A stretch of DNA of 64,000 nucleotides. Origin: Sphagnum magellanicum. Its lineage: Eukaryota > Streptophyta > Sphagnopsida > Sphagnales > Sphagnaceae. A program made the translations under genes and the position numbers. Numbering within the stretch: the first letter of the stretch is position 1; each line of letters starts with the position of its first letter. The stretch is from NCBI GenBank assembly GCA_021904315.1, contig CM038913.1, positions 41,500 to 105,499 on the forward strand. The letters are read 5' to 3'. The notes beneath the pieces are model-generated. The model had not been told where the DNA came from and made no database searches. It saw only the letters and a program-made list of their open reading frames with translations. Below are positions 1-64,000 of the stretch, piece by piece.

Positions 1-3000
1 CAATAACCAAAATTCAATGGCATTTTTTTAATTTTGGCTTCTTGCCAATGTATCCATCGCAATTCATATACATATTGGTCATGTAAAAAACCTTCCACAA
101 TGTTTGATGAGACTTGAGCCATGTCAAACAACCTTAATTTGGGGAGGTGTACATTCTTGAACATCCCTAAAACCAAATTTTCATTTCCTTTCAATGATAA
201 ACCTTGTATTCTTGAAGCCACCTATCACATGAAAAATTACAACATATGAGTTTACACATATAACATTTAAATTATGTAATAAAATTAATGCGTTTTTTTA
301 ATATACAAATTTTAAATTATAGATTTTTAAAAAAAATTGATGTAGTGATGATGACCTTTTGTTCATGCAAAATATGTAAATATGTTTTGGGATCCCATAT
401 TCGATTATTTTCCTCTTGTATTGCAAATTTTCGACCCATATCTCGCAATTGGTCATGCATAAATAAATTTCCATCTTCGTTGATTTTTACAAGAGATCTA
501 ACTTTTAAGTTTTGCAATTCAAGTGTCGAAGTTTCAGAATCCCATATTTGAAGGGCTGTAATTTCTTTCAAATCACCAAAATAACAAGCAATATCCAAAA
601 ACATATCCTTTTCTGGTTGGGCTAAATCTCTGTAAGAAATCTCCAAGCTTTGCCAAAGCACACAATTTTTACCCCCATCCAAATTTTCCGCTCTTCGTAA
701 TTTTTCCAAGGCTCCGTTCCAAATTTGCAATCTTGTTTGCATATTGTAGCTTTGTTTCTTGTGCAAAAAACTACCCATGACTTCAAGGCTCAAAGGAAGA
801 CCGGCACATGCTTCCACAATCTTCTCAAAAATGTTTTCAAAACCTTTTTCCACTTGTTTTATATTGGGAAATGTATGGGATAAAAAAAGTTCCGTTGCTT
901 GTTTTTTGTTAAGATATGGCACTTCAAATTTTCCATTTGGATCTAGATGACCCTCTAAGACTCCCCAATTTCGACAAGTCACAATTACATCACTTTTTCT
1001 ATTTTTTCCTTGAAAAGTAAGAACTTTTGATAAATCATCGATAAGCTTTTCATCAACATCATCAATGACCACTAACACTTTCTTGGAAATCATGGTCTCC
1101 TTAATACGCTTAAGATCATCACCATTCACAACTTCCACGCCATTTTTTTTCCGGCAACACAAATCTTGTAGAAGTTGTTTTTTCAAATTTTCAATATTTT
1201 TTGATTTCACATCTGCCAAGAAACTAGATTTATCATATTGCTCATGGAACAAATGGTATATCTTTTTGCTCAAAGTTGTCTTTCCAATACCCCCCATTCC
1301 AACCAAACCAATAATAGATACCTTTTGTAACAATTTATAAGTCTCCTTTGCTTTTTCTTCTAAGCTCACCTCCCATGATGGTAGTGATGGAAGTTGTCGT
1401 GGATTCTGTTGTGATTCATGCAAATCTTATATTAATATTTTGATTGAAAGAAATATATGCCATATAATAATTATTTAAAATACATTAATTTTATTTTTTG
1501 TTAAGAATATATAAATTATAAAAGTCCCATGTTATTACATCATACGTCTTGATGACAATTTAATATCTTATCAACTTAGTATATTTGAAGTGAACACAAA
1601 TCAATGTTATGAATTAACAAAAAAAATTAAATTGAGTTTTTGTCACTTATACGTTCAATGTTAAATTTTACAAAAGTGTTATGAACACAACTTCCCAAGG
1701 TTGTCATGGCATTATTAAGTTCGTCATAACATGACATGCCATTTTGAACATTAACACAACCTAATGTCATATCAAAATAGGATGAACTTAGGTGAACTTA
1801 GGGTTAACTTGAATCAAAACCTTGATAAGGTTGTCAAGGGCAAGGGTTTAATCGGGAAAAAAATCTATGACAAGTGAAACGATGACAAAAAATGGGAAAT
1901 ATTCAAGTGATAAAAAATGACAAAAATTTAAGCAACTAAATTTTTTTGGTTTTTTTTTTTACTTCTAGGTGACCAAAAGAATTTTGGTTACCAAATCAAT
2001 GGTGAGGATCAACCTTGCCATTGATTGGATGATTGAAAATTAGTCAATGACAATTTAAAGAAAAAACATTTATCATTTAGTAATTAAAAGTTCAATTGAA
2101 TGACCAAAAATTGAAATTCAATAAATAATATATATATTTTTTCCAATCACTTGGTCAAAGAATTAAAAAATGAATGATCATAAAATTTTGGTCACAAAAT
2201 CAATGTTGTAGATCAATTCATTGACGATTGAACATTTCAAATAGATTGCTAGTTTTGTTTCTAGTTGTTATTAATTGGTTTTGGTTGCTTTAGTGATTTT
2301 TGGTTGCTAATGAATTGGCAACCAATTTTTTAAAATAATTTTTTTTCCGTCAACCAATTTTGATTGTTTAATCAACAATAAGGTTTATTTCCACCATTGA
2401 TTTTACGATTGAGATTTTAATCCCAAAACAAAAATGACTAACTAATTTCGATTGCTCACCTAATTTTTCGATCATTTGATTCTTTTGGTATTAATTATTG
2501 TTTCAATCATAATTTTTGGGGATGAGCATATCACCTTTTCTTGAAAAAGCATTGGGCATTCGACTTGATAGGTGTGTTAGAATTTCATGTGGATATGACA
2601 CTTGATGCAAAATCAACGTGTCATGTGCACTATGACAACCTATAAAATCTTTAAATTTTCCTTTTCATATAATGACTAACTAAAACTTTTGCATTGAAGT
2701 TGATGTCTCACCTTTAAAAAAATATTTAAACAATCCACCAATTTTGAGTAACTTATGTGCTCCCTTGTAGGTGGCTTGCAAATAGTCAAATGATTTGCGT
2801 CTTCAATTTTGTAATAATTATTACCAGATAATCGTTGGGCTGATGCATGTGGAACAAGAATTTCCTGCACATAGTTTAATGAGAATTGAAAATCAAATAC
2901 AAGCTAAACATATTTTCATTGACTTAAAACAAAATTTTGTCAACATATTTTTTTTTCAATTAAAAAAATGTTATGAAAAGCTTAAAACATAAGGACATAC

Positions 3001-4198
3001 ACACCAATTTCAAGCACATTCATTTGATTAGCTTCAATTCATCACATTTTTACACAAGGCTTGTGTAAAGATCTAAAAGATAAAATTGCAAAAAATTTGA
3101 ATTTCTACAAAAATATCAATATGCATATTTATTGAAGGTCATTGTATTGAAAAATTACCTCATCTTTGTTAATGGGTTGTCCTTCAACAAAAGCATAAAT
3201 GTTAAGATTGTCTTTTGATCGATCAAATTCCACAGAAAGTTGTTCCATTTTTTGATCTAAAACTTGAACATTCTTATGTAAGCTTTGTTGTGGTGCTGAG
3301 TGGGTCTTGTTCAAAAAACCCATTTCCTGGCATATTTGTGCAAAATACATTGAAAATGTTTTTGTCCCACCTTCATGTGGAACACCATAGAAAATTACCC
3401 CAATAAGGTTATCATAAAAATCCTTGGATCTTGGATTCATGGCTAAATCCAAATCAGTTGATGTTTTTTGATTCATGCGTTTTTGGATTTCCACCACTAA
3501 ACTTTTGATGATCAAGCCACCAAAGCTATGACCAACCAATACAATTGGAGCACACCAAAGGTTTTCATAGCTGTAGATGCAAACAATATTTATAATTAGA
3601 TTATGTTTCAATGTCATTCTTGTATTTAAACTCCATTTATGGCATAATATAAGGATATTCAAATCTCATAAAAGGTATAAAATGAAATATATTGAAATAT
3701 GTGTTATCAATATTTTCTATTAACATATTATCCCAAATTAAAAAAGAATTTTGCAACCTTGATAACTACTATAAATTACTAATGAAAAATATTACGAAAT
3801 TTGAAATCCATTGAAGTATGGAAGGTTATGTTAAACACATGTTTAAACATGCAAAACTTTCAAATATTAGAATTGGGAAGGACATTGTTTCACCTTTGAT
3901 TCAGCACCAAACTTTCTACAAGGTTCTTCCCAATATCTGTTACATCACCATTGACCCCAAAAATATTGGTATCATATGAAAGAGAAAGGATTTGGATATT
4001 TTCTCCCATGTCCTCAACCAACCATTCTTTTATCCAAAATGTACGGCGATCCTCTCCATTTATGTGGGTAATTGATGTCCATGTTTCTTTCCACGCATTG
4101 GAAATGTCCTTTCTAGAAACAATGCCGTGAAAAAAAATGATGACCAATTTCGGGTGTGTTAAAATGAAATTCGGATACACAATATGAACTGGACTTAT
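1..4198 (-). CDS. Alpha/beta-hydrolase-NB-ARC-LRR immune receptor (HNL-type NLR), partial
   Basis: Likely intracellular immune receptor with a nucleotide-binding switch. Exons I trace, all GT-AG and in phase: 4198-3894, 3570-3159, 2864-2712, 1405-356 and 221-1, the last running off the window. The first three encode about 290 residues of a SERAC1-like alpha/beta hydrolase: an FFHG oxyanion motif (residue 24-25), the nucleophile elbow GHSFGG (Ser117), an acidic candidate in FVEG (Glu231) and the histidine in EDANHL (His264). The fourth exon is a full NB-ARC: P-loop GMGGIGKTT (326 on), kinase-2 VVIDDVD (about 403-408), GLPL (492), an RNBS-D of TIR-NLR style (FLDIACYF), and MHD (606-608). The fifth exon starts the LRR linker. 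No stop or frameshift is seen. The first coding exon, upstream of 4198, was not identified. The hydrolase-NLR class is known from liverworts; what the hydrolase does is unknown. Confidence 0.92.
1930..2510. repeat. Short imperfect direct and inverted repeats in an NLR intron
   Basis: The intron between the hydrolase and NB-ARC exons contains repeated variants of a motif like TTTTGGTCACCAAATCAATG and its reverse complement, seen around 1950-2010, 2170-2220 and 2275-2400. It has the look of a decayed foldback element. No open frame is present. Confidence 0.45.
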
Positions 4199-5780
4199 CT
4201 GCAATTGACAAGATGATCAATACAACACAATTTGTAAAACATATCAACTTCTCTTTCATAGCTTTCAACCCTAAAACAATTCATCCATTTAGATCAAAAT
4301 AACATCCTACTTTCTAAATGAAAAAAAAATTGTGGTAAAGTCGAATTCACAATATTATATATATATGATACATTTTCATGTTCATAAAAACTCATTGGCA
4401 TAATTAAAAGCCTCATAAAAAGAAAATTGGAAATAAATAAATCTTGCAAACATCCTAAAAAATTTGAGGTCATAAAGGGTCCAAAATAATTACCTTTGGG
4501 TTTTCCAAATGAAACATTTTCATTTAAGAAATTTTATATTATTAGAAAAGATTAACAAAATGAGTTCAACTTGAATCCAAACACAAGGAAAAAAAAAGAC
4601 ATCACTAAAACCTGTAAAAAATTGAAAATAATAATGATAGATGGAAAATTAAAATTAAGAGCCAAATGACTCAAGGAAGGAGTTCACACATTCAATTGTT
4701 TTCAACATGTTAATAATGACCAAAATCATTTATGTATTGAATAATTTTATGTGTGTATATACTTTCACCAATTCTTATATGGGTGCATGCCCATGTCAAT
4801 TAATTGCAAAGGTGTTGGTTTCACATAGACACTAATTCAACTAGTCTACAAAAAAAAAAACAACATATGGGGAAACAAGGAAACTATGAAGAAAGGTGAA
4901 CACAACCATATGGACAAACCAAAAAGAGCAAAACATGGAATGATGAACTATACAAGATGTAAATAATCTAATTGAAATTCTCATTACAATGTCCCATTTG
5001 ACCAAGTTAATCGTATCCTAGTAGAATGCTAGACCTTGAACCATAGGCCAATAAAGGATTTTGAGCAATATTTCCCATTTCGAATGGTGATTATTTTTCT
5101 AAGCAAAAATAAGTTTATTCCCATTCCTAAAGGTTGTGTGCACGTTTCTTGGCATTGATATTTGGAAAAAAATACTATTGATAATGACTCATTTTTTGAT
5201 GTGTGGAAATATGTGAGGGATACTCATTTTGCTATGCTATGACTTAAAAGTGGCAAATATACCTAGCCCACATGTGGCTTATGTTAGCATCTTGCTCCTT
5301 AATCAAAACATGAAAATTTGACTATAAACTTTAATTAAAATAATTAAGAAAAGGCCATAGATCCATAATTTCCTCTTAGCTTATTTTGGTCAATCAATCT
5401 ATGTTAAAATGATGATTAAATCAATTACCACTTTTGCATATTCATAGAAACTTATCAACAAAATCATATGCCTCACATGTTGAATTTCTAATTTCTAAGG
5501 CATTACAAGCCTTGGACAATGATCTTCAAAGTTCATAGTGTATTCACACCAAGTTGAACAAGTTTTCCAATACTTTGTTAACAAATGGAATGACATTCCA
5601 CATATAATACATTAGTTCATGTTAGAGATTTCCCACTACTTATGATGCAAATCAAGTTAAAGTAAAAAATGACAAATGACCTACCTATAAGATGAGCAAG
5701 ATTTTCAATCTAAGATCCAACGTCAAAACAAGTTATTGAAAATTACAAACTAGGAAACAAACAACATGTGGATGAGGGGG
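4199..5780. other. AT-rich stretch upstream of the NLR, no gene recognised
   Basis: This flank should hold the promoter and probably the first exon of the hydrolase-type NLR on the minus strand. I could not find a convincing ATG exon that joins the 4198 acceptor in phase: an ATG at 4259 is in a different frame. Several poly-A runs and AT-rich low-complexity DNA are the only other content. Confidence 0.4.
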
Positions 5781-5789
5781 TGTACATGT

Positions 5790-6440
5790 GTGCACAATGG
5801 AAGAACCTCCAAACAAGTTTTGTGCAAACCATCAAACAAGAATCCAAACGTTACCTTCACTCATCATTGTTGGTGAACTATTTAAGGCCAACCAAACCTC
5901 AATGAGTTCTGAATTTTAATTTCCACAAGGTGGAAAGTGTGTGATCAAGACAAAGTTTTGTACAAAGAAAGTTCATCATCAGATCAACAAACAACCCCCA
6001 TCCTTTACTTCTTGTTCTTGTTAAAGAGAGATTTGAAGGTAGGTCGATCTCAATAGGTTCTATAGATAATCAGTAAGGTCCAGAAAGTGTGTATTAAAGG
6101 AAAAAAAAATTGTGAAAAGGAAAGCTTATCACAAAACCCTCAAACAACAAACCCTCCCACATCACATCCTTGTTGTTGACGAGGGCCTTGAAGGTTGGTC
6201 AACCTCATAAGGTTCCAAAACATGCTCAACAAGTTGAAGAGGGCCTTGAAGGTCGGTCAACCTCAAGAGGTTCCGAAACATGTTCAACAAGTTGCAAAGT
6301 ATGGACTAAAGTTTTGTGCAAAGAAAACTTATCACGAAAGCAAACATCTCTCTCCCCCTTCCAGCCCCTCAAATCCTTCCTTTGTCATTGAACAGAGATG
6401 AGAAGGTTTAGGCCAACCTCAACACGTTCTAGAAATCTTT
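5790..6440. repeat. Degenerate tandem repeat array
   Basis: Units share an order of motifs: AAAGTTTTGT(A/G)CAAAGAAA, then (A/T)TCA(T/C)CA, a CAAACAACAA block, then GAAGGT.GGTC.A.CTCA..AGGTTC. Copies are visible near 5940, 6040, 6120 and 6310. The clearest duplication is 6181-6236 against 6240-6296, about 58 bp and nearly identical. Overlapping open frames near 6170-6400 are produced by this duplication and do not look like genes. Confidence 0.7.
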
Positions 6441-13410: not shown

Positions 13411-13449
13411 GTGTGTTATCTATGCTTCTCCATGTTTGACATGACCATG

Positions 13450-13770
13450 GTTGCCCAAGAAACGAAATCATGATCGTACATTCTGTTGAAAACTTTGTAA
13501 GCATCTTCTACGCTACCACACTTGATGTACATATTGATGAGACTGGTGTTCACAAAGACATCATATTCATAACTATAAAATTTGTGTATGAATGTGTTTG
13601 CTTTCTTGCAGTATTTGCAACTTTGTACATGCTTTGAGCACTAGAACAAAACAAAAGGTGTTTGGAGTCATGCATTCTCTTTTCATTTGCTGGAAAAACC
13701 CAATGACTTGTTCCCACTGCCCAAATTTCACACACATTCCAAGTTGGGCATTCGATGCTCATTTGTCCAC
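13450..13770 (-). pseudogene. PPR repeat fragment, frameshifted
   Basis: The minus strand reads LGMCVKFGQWEQVIGFFQQM, then TPNTFCFVLVLKACTKLQIL, and after a single-base shift YEYDVFVNTSLINMY, KCGSVEDAYKVFN and DHDFVSWAT. This is the regular repeat order of a plant PLS-class PPR protein. The frameshift lies near 13570-13580. Its orientation matches the E-domain piece at 11785-12120, so both probably came from one gene that is now split by the repeat at 12540-13410. Confidence 0.82.
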
Positions 13771-20547: not shown

Positions 20548-21580
20548 TCAAGGGATGGGAGAACTGTGGCTGAGAAGCAGCCTGCTAAAGGTTCGGGGGT
20601 CCGGTGGTGGCGGTATTGGTAGAAGTAGCACTGCAGCTACTCCTCCACAGAATGCAGCTCCAGCTCCAAACAAGAACGCAGGCATGTTGTCGCCTCCGAA
20701 GACCTCATCCAAGGGTCCGGCTCCCAGGGAAACAATGAGTTGCGGGAGAGAAATAGACAAATTCAACGCCCCCATGGACACACCTTGCCCACCTCCAACG
20801 TCTTCTGTGAAAGTTACACCCATAGAGAATGACACAGAGAACGTCACCGCGAGAGAAACTCCCAGGAGTGATAACACCACCAGCGCCACGAATGTTACCA
20901 AAGGTTCTGGGCCTTCATCTTCGGCCGTCGTTGTTGCGGTTCGCTTTGCTATTGCTGTTATTAGCGTCGTGGCTGCGTAGCACGCTACCATAACCATGTT
21001 GCCTAATTCTTAGACGTACTTAGACCCAAGCTTTCCGCAAAGGTAATCTATGCAGAGCGAAAAGAGGTCGAGCACGATGGAATGGAGCACAAGCCCCAAG
21101 GACCCCATGTGCACTTCGTCGAAGTATCGTTTGGTGAGATCCAAAAACGTCGGCCTGCCCATGTAGACTTTTCGCACCATCCAGTCCATGCCAAAGAAAA
21201 GGATAGGGAAGGTAGCCAGCCATGTGAGCGTCGTAATAAGGAGAATACACCACATAGGCCGAGGAAGATCCCGCAGCGCCTTCAGGATCTCCAAAAACAT
21301 CGTTTCCGACTCCAGCTCAACCAGTTCTTCTTCCTCGTCTGGATTCTGCACCGCACCAGATACGGTAGGTGCCTTCTGGGTGGCTTCAGGGTGTGCAGAA
21401 GAACACTAGTGATCTGCGATCAATGGCGCAAAATGCCATATCTTTTCTGCTACCGTGTCTGGGTAGCAGAAAGTGAGGAATCTCAGAAGCCGCAGTGACG
21501 CTGAAGAATGTGGTGAAGGCAAGGACGACGATGGCGAGAAAATAGGCGAACTTAAGATTGAAGTAGAAAGAGTTGGCTCT
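20548..21580 (-). pseudogene. Sucrose transporter (SUT/SUC family), dead
   Basis: Remains of a proton-sucrose symporter of the major facilitator superfamily. The minus strand reads NLKFAYFLAIVVLAFTTFFS then VTAASEIPH (a membrane helix), a frameshift between about 21370 and 21480, then a loop rich in Glu (NPDEEEELVELE), DLPRPMWCILLITTLTWLA, FFGMDWMVRKVYMG, MGSLGLVLHSIVLD and LCGKLGSKYV. A TAA at 21010-21012 follows, where the family normally continues directly, and the same frame goes on with NMVMVACYAA, GQGVSMGALNLSISLPQLIV and MPAFLFGAGAAFCGGVAAVL to a stop at 20548. The N-terminal half of the transporter is absent, and a TGA lies just upstream of 21580. One frameshift, one internal stop and 5' truncation make it a pseudogene. 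Confidence 0.88.
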
Positions 21581-44855: not shown

Positions 44856-45001
44856 GGTGCGCTCGTTGCTGCGGTCGCAGAGCTCTTTGCCGCCATCGCC
44901 ACAAATAGCGGCACGGGCTTGAAGTTCCTCCTCCTGCCGCTGCTGCTGCATCGTCATCCTCGGCTTCTGTTTCTGTGCCTGTTTCGGAGATTTTTTTTTC
45001 A

Positions 45002-46824
45002 ATGCTGGGAAACCATGGCGTTAGGCAGGTGGTGCGTGTGGCACAGGACGGCAGTGGACACTACCTGACAGTGCAGGCAGCGATCGACGCGGTTCCGCTC
45101 TGCAATACGCAGCGAGTTGTCATCAGCATTGCCGCTGGAGTGTACCGACAGCCAATTTACGTCCCCAAGACCAAGAATCTGATCACGTTGCAGGTAAAAA
45201 GGGGTCTGGACCGTCGCTGGGGTGTGGGTATCTTGGTCAACAGTTGCCAAGCAGCCTTGGTTGTCGTCAGAAAAGCTTCATTGTCTCCGTTTGTGTAAGC
45301 CGGTTCTGGATTCAAACTGCAGCAGGCCTTTGTGCTGAATCTTGAACAGGGAGCCTTATTCCATATACAATAAAAATCGGGTTTGAAGGTTGAAGGAAAT
45401 GTGTGAATGCCACCTTTACAGTAGGAAAGTCGCCCTATGAGTCGTGAAGACAGCTCTCAGTCATGCGTTGATGGTAGAATAAGGAATTCTTTCTTTCTTG
45501 CCTTGGGGATTAGGGTTTCATAACTGCAGATTTGCAGGTGTGATTCTTCCTCTTGTAAAGGAGAATGGCATTCTGTACCCTGGCGATCCTGAGTGAATTT
45601 TGTTCCCCACCCTTGGAGCTCCTGCCTTGTAGGATGTGTACGCCTTTCTCAAAGGCCATAAGCAGGGCAATGTGGCTCACCAAGTCAAGGAGTTGAAGTC
45701 TTCAGTTCCCAGTTGGTTAATTATGATGTGCATTGTATTTTCTGGTTTGAGTCTTTGCATTGGCTGCAGCTGAATCTTAAACTTTATGGAGGTCCAATGC
45801 TGCCCAAGTCCACAAGACATGAATATGACATCTTGAGTCTTTCATGTCCAGATCATGTACTAGTACATGCTTGGATCTGTACCATGGTTCTAGAGATAGC
45901 CTGAACCAGTGGAATGACTCAAAATGAGAGTGAATGCACCCTATGATCATTTGATCATATTTTGTGTGCAAGTTCATGGCACATGTGAAAGTTTGGGCTT
46001 TTGAGTCTTTGGACCTGGTGGAAGTGCAGGGAGCAAATGCGCATGACACGATTCTTACATGGAGCAACACTGCTACAAACATTGAGCATCACCAGGCATC
46101 ACGAGTGATTGGGACAGGGACGTTTGCCTGTGGCTCAGTGATTGTGGAGGGTGAGGATTTTATAGCTCAAGGACTCACATTTGAAAATGGTGCACCGCAA
46201 GGATCAGGTCAAGCAGTGGCCATCAGAGTAACTGCAGATCGGTGTGCATTCTATAACTGTCGGTTTTTGGGATGGCAGGATACTGCTTATCTGCACTATG
46301 GCAGGCACTACTTCAGAGACTGTTACATTGAGGGAAGTGTAGATTTCATCTTTGGGAATGGGCAAGTGCTGTTGGAGCACTGCCATATCCACTGCAAGTC
46401 TAATGGCTTCATCACAGCGCAGCAGCGTCGAAATGCGAATGAGACCACAGGCTTTGTGTTTTTGACATGTGTGATTACAGGCACTGGCAGTGGTGCTCCG
46501 TACATGCATCTTGGCCGGCCGTGGGCACCATGTGCACGAGTCATTTTTGCTTACACTTGGATGGATACTTGCATTCTGCCTGTGGGTTGGAACAACTGGA
46601 ATGACAGAGCCAATGAGAAAACAGCATGCTACATAGAGTACAAGTGCTCAGGGCCTGGAAGCAACAAATCTCAGCGTTGTTCATGGGCTCGCCAATTGCA
46701 AGATTCTGATGCTGCTCAATTTCTATCACCAGATTTCATTGATCCACAGCAATCATGGTTGACACAGCGATTCAAAGATGCTCCTCCCTATGTGCCTGTT
46801 CCATTGTCAGCAAGAGCGTTATGA
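45002..46824 (+). CDS. PME31: Pectin methylesterase, PME31 type
   Basis: Removes methyl esters from homogalacturonan (carbohydrate esterase family 8). Two exons, 45002-45193 and 46030-46824, with phase 0 GT-AG splicing, give 328 residues. The protein starts almost at once with the catalytic domain (VVRVAQDGSGHYLTVQAAID); there is no PMEI pro-domain and no evident signal peptide, as in Arabidopsis PME31. Active-site blocks are all present: GQAVA (Gln125), GWQDT (Gln147, Asp148), GSVDFIFG (Asp169) and LGRPW (Arg227, Trp229). The block HHQASRVIGTGTF is typical of this subgroup. The ATG at 45002 is chosen because family homology starts about ten residues later. No lesion is seen. A tandem duplication and a TCG microsatellite lie in its leader. 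Confidence 0.95.
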
Positions 46825-53419: not shown

Positions 53420-53860
53420 TTTTGAGTTTGAGTTTAGGGTTTTACTGTTTTTGGGTTATGGTTAGCTTTTACATGTTTAAGTTTTAGGGTTGTGCTTCAT
53501 GGGTTACCCTTTTAGGGTTCGAAGTTTAGGTTTTCATGTGAGGGTTTAAGATTTTGTGATTTGAGTTTAGGGTTTAAAATTGACAGTTTATAGTCTATGT
53601 TCAACTTTTGAAGTTAGTGGTTTTAGGGTTTAGACTTTCCAGATTTAGGGTTTAAATTGAAGGTTTAGGTTTTTATGGTTGGAGTTTAGGGTTTAGGGTT
53701 TAGATTTTTAGGGTGTAAGCTTTTAAGGTTTTCAACTTATGGTGGGTTTTGGGTTTTAATGGTTCAGGGGTAGTATTTAAAAGTTTTAGGGCAAAGTTTA
53801 GAGGTTTAGGGTTTAGGTTTTGGTGATTTGAACAAGTTTAGTGTCTAAGGCTTTAGGGTT
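53420..53860 (+). repeat. Degenerate interstitial telomere-like repeat
   Basis: Dozens of copies of TTTAGGG or near variants (GTTTAGGGTTT, TTTTAGGGTT) in one orientation are spread over about 440 bp, with the best short run at 53687-53703. Spacers are other G/T-rich sequence. Arabidopsis-type telomere repeats are the obvious source, though promoter telo-boxes or drift are alternatives. Confidence 0.7.
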
Positions 53861-63841: not shown

Positions 63842-64000
63842 TCAATTTATCAATAGATGTAAGTAACTCCTTCAACTATGAGCACTTTAACAAATCTAAC
63901 TTTTCAAGGGCAATGAATTCAACAATAGATGTAAGTAATTCTTTCAACCTATGAGCACCCTAACAAATTCAAATATTGAAGAGTATTTAATTTGTCAATA
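63842..64000 (+). repeat. Tandem duplication of about 80 bp at the right edge
   Basis: Two units share AATAGATGTAAGTAA.TC.TTCAAC then TATGAGCAC..TAACAAAT and CAA. It may continue beyond the window. Confidence 0.65.

What the first reader, a model, noticed from the sequence alone, without database searches (positions are those of the whole stretch)
1..4198. NLR with an alpha/beta-hydrolase head in place of TIR or coiled coil
Five exons join in phase to give a SERAC1-like hydrolase (GHSFGG, EDANHL) followed by a complete NB-ARC with a TIR-type RNBS-D (FLDIACYF) and an LRR linker. The nucleophile, an oxyanion HG and the histidine are kept, so the head could be an active esterase or lipase. Hydrolase-NLRs were described from liverworts, and their biochemistry is essentially open. 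Seeing an intact one beside recent repeats makes this the most interesting locus here.
Basis: partly seen in the sequence, partly recalled or inferred. Interest (0 to 1): 0.9.

Follow-up and report, generated by a model that had tools for sequence, protein, structure and literature searches.

The report
Plant hydrolase-headed immune receptor gene
This is a plant immune-receptor gene whose front end is a lipase-like enzyme domain with its likely catalytic residues kept; genes of this kind are already known from liverworts and some mosses, so it is a good new example rather than a new kind.

Summary
On the minus strand, exons 4198-3894, 3570-3159, 2864-2712, 1405-356 and 221-(edge) join with GT/AG borders into 713 stop-free codons. 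Residues 1-290 are a DUF676-type (SERAC1-like) alpha/beta-hydrolase (Pfam above cut-off; 97 bits to a profile of eight bacterial relatives, best of 2000 shuffles 11). Ser117, Glu231, His264 and an oxyanion His-Gly are identical in nine of nine aligned sequences, suggesting a Ser-Glu-His esterase. Residues 291-640 are an NB-ARC with a Roq1-type winged helix. Phase-0 introns within the hydrolase, before and after the NB-ARC match the published signature of the bryophyte HNL (hydrolase-NBS-LRR) class. So: a new member of a known class. 'Intact' is unproven: the start exon is a guess (4523-4494), the LRR lies off the window, no transcript was available, and the species is unknown. The head also matches the heads of two large bacterial proteins that PADLOC calls PD-Lambda-4_A. 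Best mechanism: a resistosome that switches on a serine esterase and causes cell death; oligomerisation, activity and substrate are inferred.

The parts
4494..4523 (-). Candidate first coding exon, MKMFHLENPK, donor AAG|GTAATT, phase 0 to the exon at 4198 (tentative)
   Evidence: Scan of phase-0 ATG-to-donor stretches upstream of 4198: donor score 3.97, above two of the four donors of the gene model scored in the same call (2.37, 0.94). Of the seven rows listed, two (ATG at 4523 and 4517) share this donor and are the nearest to 4198. No sequence or transcript support.
3894..4198 (-). Hydrolase exon A: aa 1-101 and two bases of codon 102, with the oxyanion HG (aa 24-25)
   Evidence: Open frame, GT/AG borders, phase 2 at its end; H24 and G25 identical in 9 of 9 aligned sequences
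3159..3570 (-). Hydrolase exon B: nucleophile elbow GHSFGG (Ser117, 3527-3525), YGVPHEG, candidate acid Glu231 (3185-3183)
   Evidence: Open frame, phase 0 at its end; residues located; S117 and E231 identical in 9 of 9
2712..2864 (-). Hydrolase exon C: candidate catalytic His264 (2792-2790) in EDANHLTICKP
   Evidence: Open frame, phase 0 at its end; H264 identical in 9 of 9
1406..2711 (-). 1306-base phase-0 intron between hydrolase and NB-ARC; no TIR or other domain recognised in it
   Evidence: Borders, length; the three minus-strand open frames of 40 aa or more that lie wholly in it gave no Pfam match above a cut-off (one had a sub-threshold zinc-finger match, E 0.13)
356..1405 (-). NB-ARC exon: P-loop GMGGIGKTT, VLVVIDDVD, VIVTCRN, CAGLPL, RNBS-D FLDIACYF, MHD, Roq1-like winged helix
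   Evidence: Pfam NB-ARC E 9.4e-34 and WHD_ROQ1 E 8.3e-8; PDB best Roq1 E 2.4e-37; motif positions; motif names recalled
1..221 (-). Exon after the NB-ARC, running off the window; looks like the start of a TNL-type LRR region (ELRWIHWQEAKIKKMPLNFGY)
   Evidence: Open frame after an AG acceptor, behind a phase-0 intron 355-222; no Pfam match; resemblance to TNL LRR starts is recalled

Best explanation
This is a hydrolase-NBS-LRR (HNL, Hyd-NLR) gene. At rest the NB-ARC holds ADP and keeps the N-terminal hydrolase apart and inactive. Recognition through the C-terminal LRR (outside the window) lets the NB-ARC exchange nucleotide and oligomerise. This brings several SERAC1-like hydrolase heads together, and their Ser117-Glu231-His264 site then cleaves an ester, most likely in a phospholipid or a lipid-derived signal, leading to membrane damage or an immune signal and cell death. 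Shown here: the gene anatomy, the two domain assignments, the conserved candidate triad, and the class-specific intron phases. Reported by others for Marchantia relatives: two hydrolase domains on their own cause HR-like responses and ion leakage. Inferred: single transcript, oligomerisation, enzyme activity, substrate. The confidence given is for class and anatomy; the enzyme step alone I would put nearer 0.55.
For: Five stop-free exons in phase with GT/AG borders. DUF676 hydrolase and NB-ARC/WHD_ROQ1 domains; Roq1 best PDB match. PADLOC DUF626_VIII covers aa 66-285 of the head at E 2.1e-11. tblastn finds 22 plasmid records, best E 1e-10. I fetched eight of the 22; of these, two carry the head on proteins that PADLOC calls PD-Lambda-4_A (E 1.9e-180 and 2.3e-183), one on an AAA_35 protein, and two are annotated as ABC-three component system proteins. 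Six of the eight were scanned with PADLOC and all six match DUF626_VIII (the weakest 8e-4). H24, G25, S117, E231 and H264 are identical in 9 of 9. The NB-ARC exon has no in-frame ATG before the P-loop Met, so it needs an upstream exon. Phase-0 introns at the three places described for HNL (read). Hydrolase domains of two Marchantia HNLs elicit HR-like responses (PMC11218826, section 8).
Against: No transcript supports the 1306-base splice; the acceptor at 1406 has the weakest T-tract of the five (6 T of 25) and the donor at 356 scores only 0.94. The first exon is unidentified and the LRR is unseen. A single-sequence PDB search of the head found nothing up to E 10, and NCBIfam gave no meaningful hydrolase match; the strong evidence comes from relatives. 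Two of the eight relatives had weak tblastn matches of their own (Nostoc E 0.01, Methylobacterium E 0.8). Two features are not in the published HNL description: an additional phase-2 intron inside the hydrolase and an intron upstream of 4198. I saw no report of esterase activity for a plant HNL head in the passages I read.
Confidence: 0.8

Rival explanations
1. Two neighbouring genes: a stand-alone SERAC1-like esterase and a head-to-tail NB-ARC-LRR gene with its own start, misread as one.
For: Large 1306-base gap with a weak acceptor; reading through the donor after 2712 would end the hydrolase with a stop 11 codons on.
Against: No ATG in frame between the upstream stop and the P-loop, whose own Met is the first; Pfam found no other domain in the three open frames of the gap; the phase-0 junction sits where HNL genes have a conserved intron; the donor at 2712 is the strongest of the four scored (6.17). 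A start exon for a separate NB-ARC gene within the gap was not searched for with a splice scan.
Confidence: 0.08
2. The hydrolase head is a non-catalytic scaffold, like the lipase-like EDS1 family: it binds a lipid or partner and is not an enzyme.
For: Review PMC10952240 raises lipid binding and an EDS1-like role as possibilities (passages); the Pfam match is weak; the plant head carries extra loops relative to the bacterial ones.
Against: The candidate catalytic residues and the oxyanion HG are kept, identical in 9 of 9 sequences although the bacterial ones are only 19-28% identical to the head.
Confidence: 0.25
3. A decaying pseudogene of an HNL family.
For: No start exon established; LRR-like fragments with stops lie at the other window edge (63844-64000, by eye), which suggests NLR decay in the region.
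Against: 713 codons without a stop, GT/AG borders, motifs kept.
Confidence: 0.12

Closest known systems
HNL / Hyd-NLR class of bryophytes (Xue et al. 2012, PMC3352924; Chia et al. 2024, PMC11218826)
   Same: Alpha/beta-hydrolase head, NB-ARC of the TNL side, phase-0 introns within the hydrolase, before and after the NB-ARC
   Different: One extra phase-2 intron inside the hydrolase and an intron upstream of it; LRR not seen; species unknown. No published HNL sequence was available here for direct alignment. Chia et al. also report a minor group of Sphagnum hydrolase-NLRs on the CC/RPW8 side, which this does not resemble
Fungal sesB-like NLRs (Dyrka et al. 2014, PMC4986451)
   Same: SERAC1-related lipase-like head on an NB-ARC or NACHT core (passages)
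   Different: TPR, WD40 or ankyrin repeats, no LRR, according to that paper; not compared by sequence here
Bacterial proteins that PADLOC calls PD-Lambda-4_A (L001, L002)
   Same: N-terminal hydrolase of the same family with the same S, E, H and HG
   Different: Different body: the plant NB-ARC exon has no PD-Lambda-4 match in PADLOC up to E 0.1. Pfam sees only sub-threshold AAA matches in the body of L002 and none in L001, so calling them STAND NTPases is recalled, not shown
TIR-NLRs (Roq1; RPP1, name recalled for 7crb)
   Same: NB-ARC and winged helix (Roq1 E 2.4e-37, 7crb E 1e-21)
   Different: No TIR domain; the intron before the NB-ARC is phase 0, not the TNL phase 2

Membership tests
HNL (hydrolase-NBS-LRR) | Alpha/beta-hydrolase domain N-terminal to the NB-ARC | tested here: met
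   Pfam DUF676 above cut-off; 97 bits to a profile of eight bacterial heads, best of 2000 shuffles 11.3
HNL (hydrolase-NBS-LRR) | NB-ARC closer to TNL than to CNL | tested here: met
   NB-ARC 9.4e-34, WHD_ROQ1 8.3e-8; Roq1 2.4e-37 and 7crb (RPP1, recalled) 1e-21 rank above the first CC-named entry, MLA13 5.4e-15. No tree was built
HNL (hydrolase-NBS-LRR) | Phase-0 introns within the hydrolase, between hydrolase and NBS, and between NBS and LRR | tested here: met
   Phase 0 at 3158/2865, 2711/1406 and 355/222. The exact position inside the hydrolase could not be compared because the paper's figure is not held, and that the last intron borders an LRR rests on the unseen LRR
HNL (hydrolase-NBS-LRR) | C-terminal LRR | tested here: inconclusive
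   Only 73 aa after the NB-ARC exon lie in the window, no Pfam match
HNL (hydrolase-NBS-LRR) | One transcript | not testable with these tools
   No RNA data
HNL (hydrolase-NBS-LRR) | Bryophyte host | not testable with these tools
   No genome is held for the window
DUF676/SERAC1-like serine hydrolase | Nucleophile Ser, acid, His and oxyanion HG | tested here: met
   S117, E231, H264, H24, G25 identical in 9 of 9; the role of E231 as the acid is inferred from conservation; human SERAC1 itself was not aligned
TNL | N-terminal TIR | tested here: not met
   Head is a hydrolase; no TIR match in the three open frames of the intron before the NB-ARC
PD-Lambda-4 | PD-Lambda-4_A body | tested here: not met
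   NB-ARC exon: no PD-Lambda-4 match in PADLOC up to E 0.1, best AriA 5.9e-4

The most novel reading that the evidence does not exclude
Plant HNLs, fungal sesB NLRs and bacterial defence proteins of the kind PADLOC calls PD-Lambda-4 share one catalytic effector module: a Ser-Glu-His SERAC1-like esterase switched on by a receptor body of different or only distantly related make. This locus would be a plant example with the site fully kept. If the species proves to be a vascular plant, it would also break the reported restriction of the class to bryophytes.
Probability: 0.35. Interest if true: 0.6.

Novelty: new member of a known kind. Interest (0 to 1): 0.35.

Why it matters
In the passages I read, the biochemistry of hydrolase-NLRs is described as little known (PMC10952240) or still to be assessed in detail (PMC11218826). 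The alignment with bacterial heads names three residues to mutate (Ser117, Glu231, His264) and gives bacterial homologues to compare, which makes the 'enzyme or scaffold' question directly testable.

Tried and rejected
One search took exon 1 one base too long and gave stops; corrected. The single-sequence PDB search of the head found nothing up to E 10. Prokaryote genome scans with the head (15 stretches matched a pattern, none a relative) and with a nucleophile-elbow pattern (none) found nothing; the plasmid tblastn did, with 14 of 22 records covering at least 80% of the head. In the phage collection 2 records matched weakly (E 0.03); PHROGs gave one sub-meaningful match (E 0.02). NCBIfam gave only two far-below-cut-off matches to the head. 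No second copy in the window: tblastn at E up to 1 returned only the gene's own exons (the query held no LRR). No structure was predicted: the tool takes proteins that the DNA gives letter for letter, and this protein is spliced, so I did not submit it. Species identification failed: no genome held, no tRNA, no Rfam match at gathering score. I read PADLOC 'DUF626_VIII' as a DUF676-type hydrolase model because proteins with DUF676 matches hit it; one paper search on this gave nothing useful.

Papers: PMC3352924 parts 1-3 of 5; PMC11218826 sections 6, 7, 8 and passages; PMC12512272, PMC10952240 and PMC4986451 passages only; all others only as search listings.

Full report
What was claimed and what is there. 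The exons are 4198-3894, 3570-3159, 2864-2712, 1405-356 and 221 to the window edge. The four introns have GT/AG borders, phases after exons 1-4 are 2, 0, 0, 0, and the joined frame has 713 codons and no stop. In 20,000 single-base shuffles per exon, an open frame in any of the strand's three frames appeared 14, 1, 995, 0 and 82 times; introns are 18-27% GC while GC by codon position in the exons is 0.45/0.29/0.30. This is a coding gene and not chance.

What is missing. The exon at 4198 has no in-frame ATG at its head, so an upstream exon must exist. The best candidate is 4523-4494 (MKMFHLENPK) with a donor score of 3.97, above two of the four donors of the model; this is a guess. The LRR lies beyond the window. 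The last 73 residues have no Pfam match. So 'intact' is shown for the hydrolase and NB-ARC only.

The head. Pfam places residues 20-136 in DUF676, 22.4 bits against a cut-off of 20.3. PADLOC model DUF626_VIII covers residues 66-285 at E 2.1e-11. A tblastn against 72,556 plasmid records found 22 with a match, 14 of which cover at least 80% of the head, best E 1e-10. I fetched eight of the 22, one per genus among the 20 listed except Acinetobacter. The fourteen left out are six Acinetobacter (63% coverage), other Rhizobium, Dinoroseobacter and Agrobacterium records, and two records not listed. Two of the eight were weak in tblastn themselves (Nostoc E 0.01, Methylobacterium E 0.8). A profile made from those eight alone scores the plant head at 97.1 bits; the best of 2000 shuffles of the head scores 11.3. 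The joint profile of all nine finds 86 PDB sequences up to E 10, of which 60 are shown; the ten best are named esterase, lipase or hydrolase, led by 6wpx (BlEst2) at 1e-7, and they cover only about the first 160 of 259 positions. The single sequence had found nothing, and NCBIfam had no useful match. Identity of the eight to the head is 19-28%.

The active site. Across these nine sequences fourteen columns are invariant, among them H24, G25, S117, E231 and H264 (checked). These fit an oxyanion HG, a nucleophile, an acid and a histidine. Its assignment rests on conservation alone; no structure was made.

The core. The exon 1405-356 matches NB-ARC at 9.4e-34 and the Roq1-type winged helix at 8.3e-8 (there it was joined to the next exon). 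In the PDB the order is Roq1 (2.4e-37), 7crb, an NAD+ hydrolase that I recall as RPP1 (1e-21), ADR2 (1.9e-16), MLA13 (5.4e-15) and then further NLRs. P-loop, VLVVIDDVD, CAGLPL, FLDIACYF and MHD are present; the motif names and the reading of FLDIACYF as TNL-type are recalled. No tree was built.

One gene or two. The NB-ARC exon has no ATG in frame before the P-loop Met. The 1306-base intron holds no recognised domain in its three open frames of 40 residues or more. The junction is phase 0, as described for HNL genes and unlike the phase 2 of TNL genes. Against this, the acceptor at 1406 has the weakest T-tract of the five and no transcript could be examined.

Class. Xue et al. 2012 (parts 1-3 of 5 read) define HNL by a hydrolase head, an NBS and an LRR, and by conserved phase-0 introns within the hydrolase, between hydrolase and NBS, and between NBS and LRR. 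The three phases are met here. Two further introns, one of phase 2 inside the hydrolase and one upstream, are not in that description. Chia et al. 2024 (sections 6-8 and passages) place most bryophyte hydrolase-NLRs near bryophyte TIR-NLRs, with a minor Sphagnum group on the CC/RPW8 side, and report that two Marchantia hydrolase domains cause HR-like responses and ion leakage in N. benthamiana. A review says the heads are most abundant in liverworts and in Sphagnum and Ceratodon (PMC10952240, passages). A fern survey reports none in ferns (PMC12512272, passages). The window's species is not known, so I cannot say whether this member extends the range.

A cross-kingdom link. Two of the eight fetched bacterial proteins, 1373 and 1375 residues long, have the hydrolase head on a body that PADLOC calls PD-Lambda-4_A (E 1.9e-180 and 2.3e-183). 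Pfam sees only sub-threshold AAA matches in one of these bodies and none in the other. One further protein has an AAA_35 body, and two belong to loci annotated as ABC-three component systems. PMC4986451 (passages) already relates the fungal sesB head to SERAC1 and to the bryophyte HNL head. I saw no paper that ties the plant head to the PD-Lambda-4 head, but the only searches that bear on this were made, which were narrow or poorly focused and were seen as listings, so this is not evidence of novelty.

Mechanism. The best reading is an NLR resistosome that brings serine-hydrolase heads together and turns on ester cleavage, probably of lipids, leading to cell death. Anatomy, domains and residues are shown. 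Oligomerisation is inferred from what is known of TNL and CNL resistosomes (recalled). Activity and substrate are inferred. A lipase-like scaffold without catalysis, as in EDS1, remains the main rival.

Verdict. Ordinary in kind, well preserved where visible, and useful because it names testable residues: a new member of a known class.

Noticed in passing
window 63844-64000, minus strand: Two or three head-to-tail LRR-like units (YLNLLGCS..LKELLTSI, by eye) with stops and a frame change: perhaps a decayed LRR gene at the other end of the window. A typed composite gave no Pfam match.
   Followed up: partly
window 13416-13758, minus strand: Pentatricopeptide-repeat fragments in two overlapping frames (PPR just above its cut-off in one, PPR_2 below its cut-off in both), looking like a decayed PPR gene.
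   Followed up: partly
window 44909-46821, plus strand: Pectinesterase gene in at least two exons (Pfam 1.2e-9 and 8.2e-60).
   Followed up: partly
window 20551-21405, minus strand: Two adjacent open frames with membrane-like stretches that look like exons of a sucrose-transporter-type protein (by eye, recalled); no Pfam match for the single pieces.
   Followed up: no
window 53518-53708: Repeats holding the motif TTTAGGG, the plant telomere unit (recalled); perhaps an interstitial telomere-like tract.
   Followed up: no
window 6175-6294: 58-base tandem repeat, about two copies, 90% matches, about 1.7 kb upstream of the candidate start exon.
   Followed up: no
L001 3953-8074 and L002 3953-8080: Plasmid-borne proteins with a hydrolase head and a PD-Lambda-4_A body by PADLOC, annotated only as hypothetical protein or alpha/beta fold hydrolase.
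   Followed up: partly
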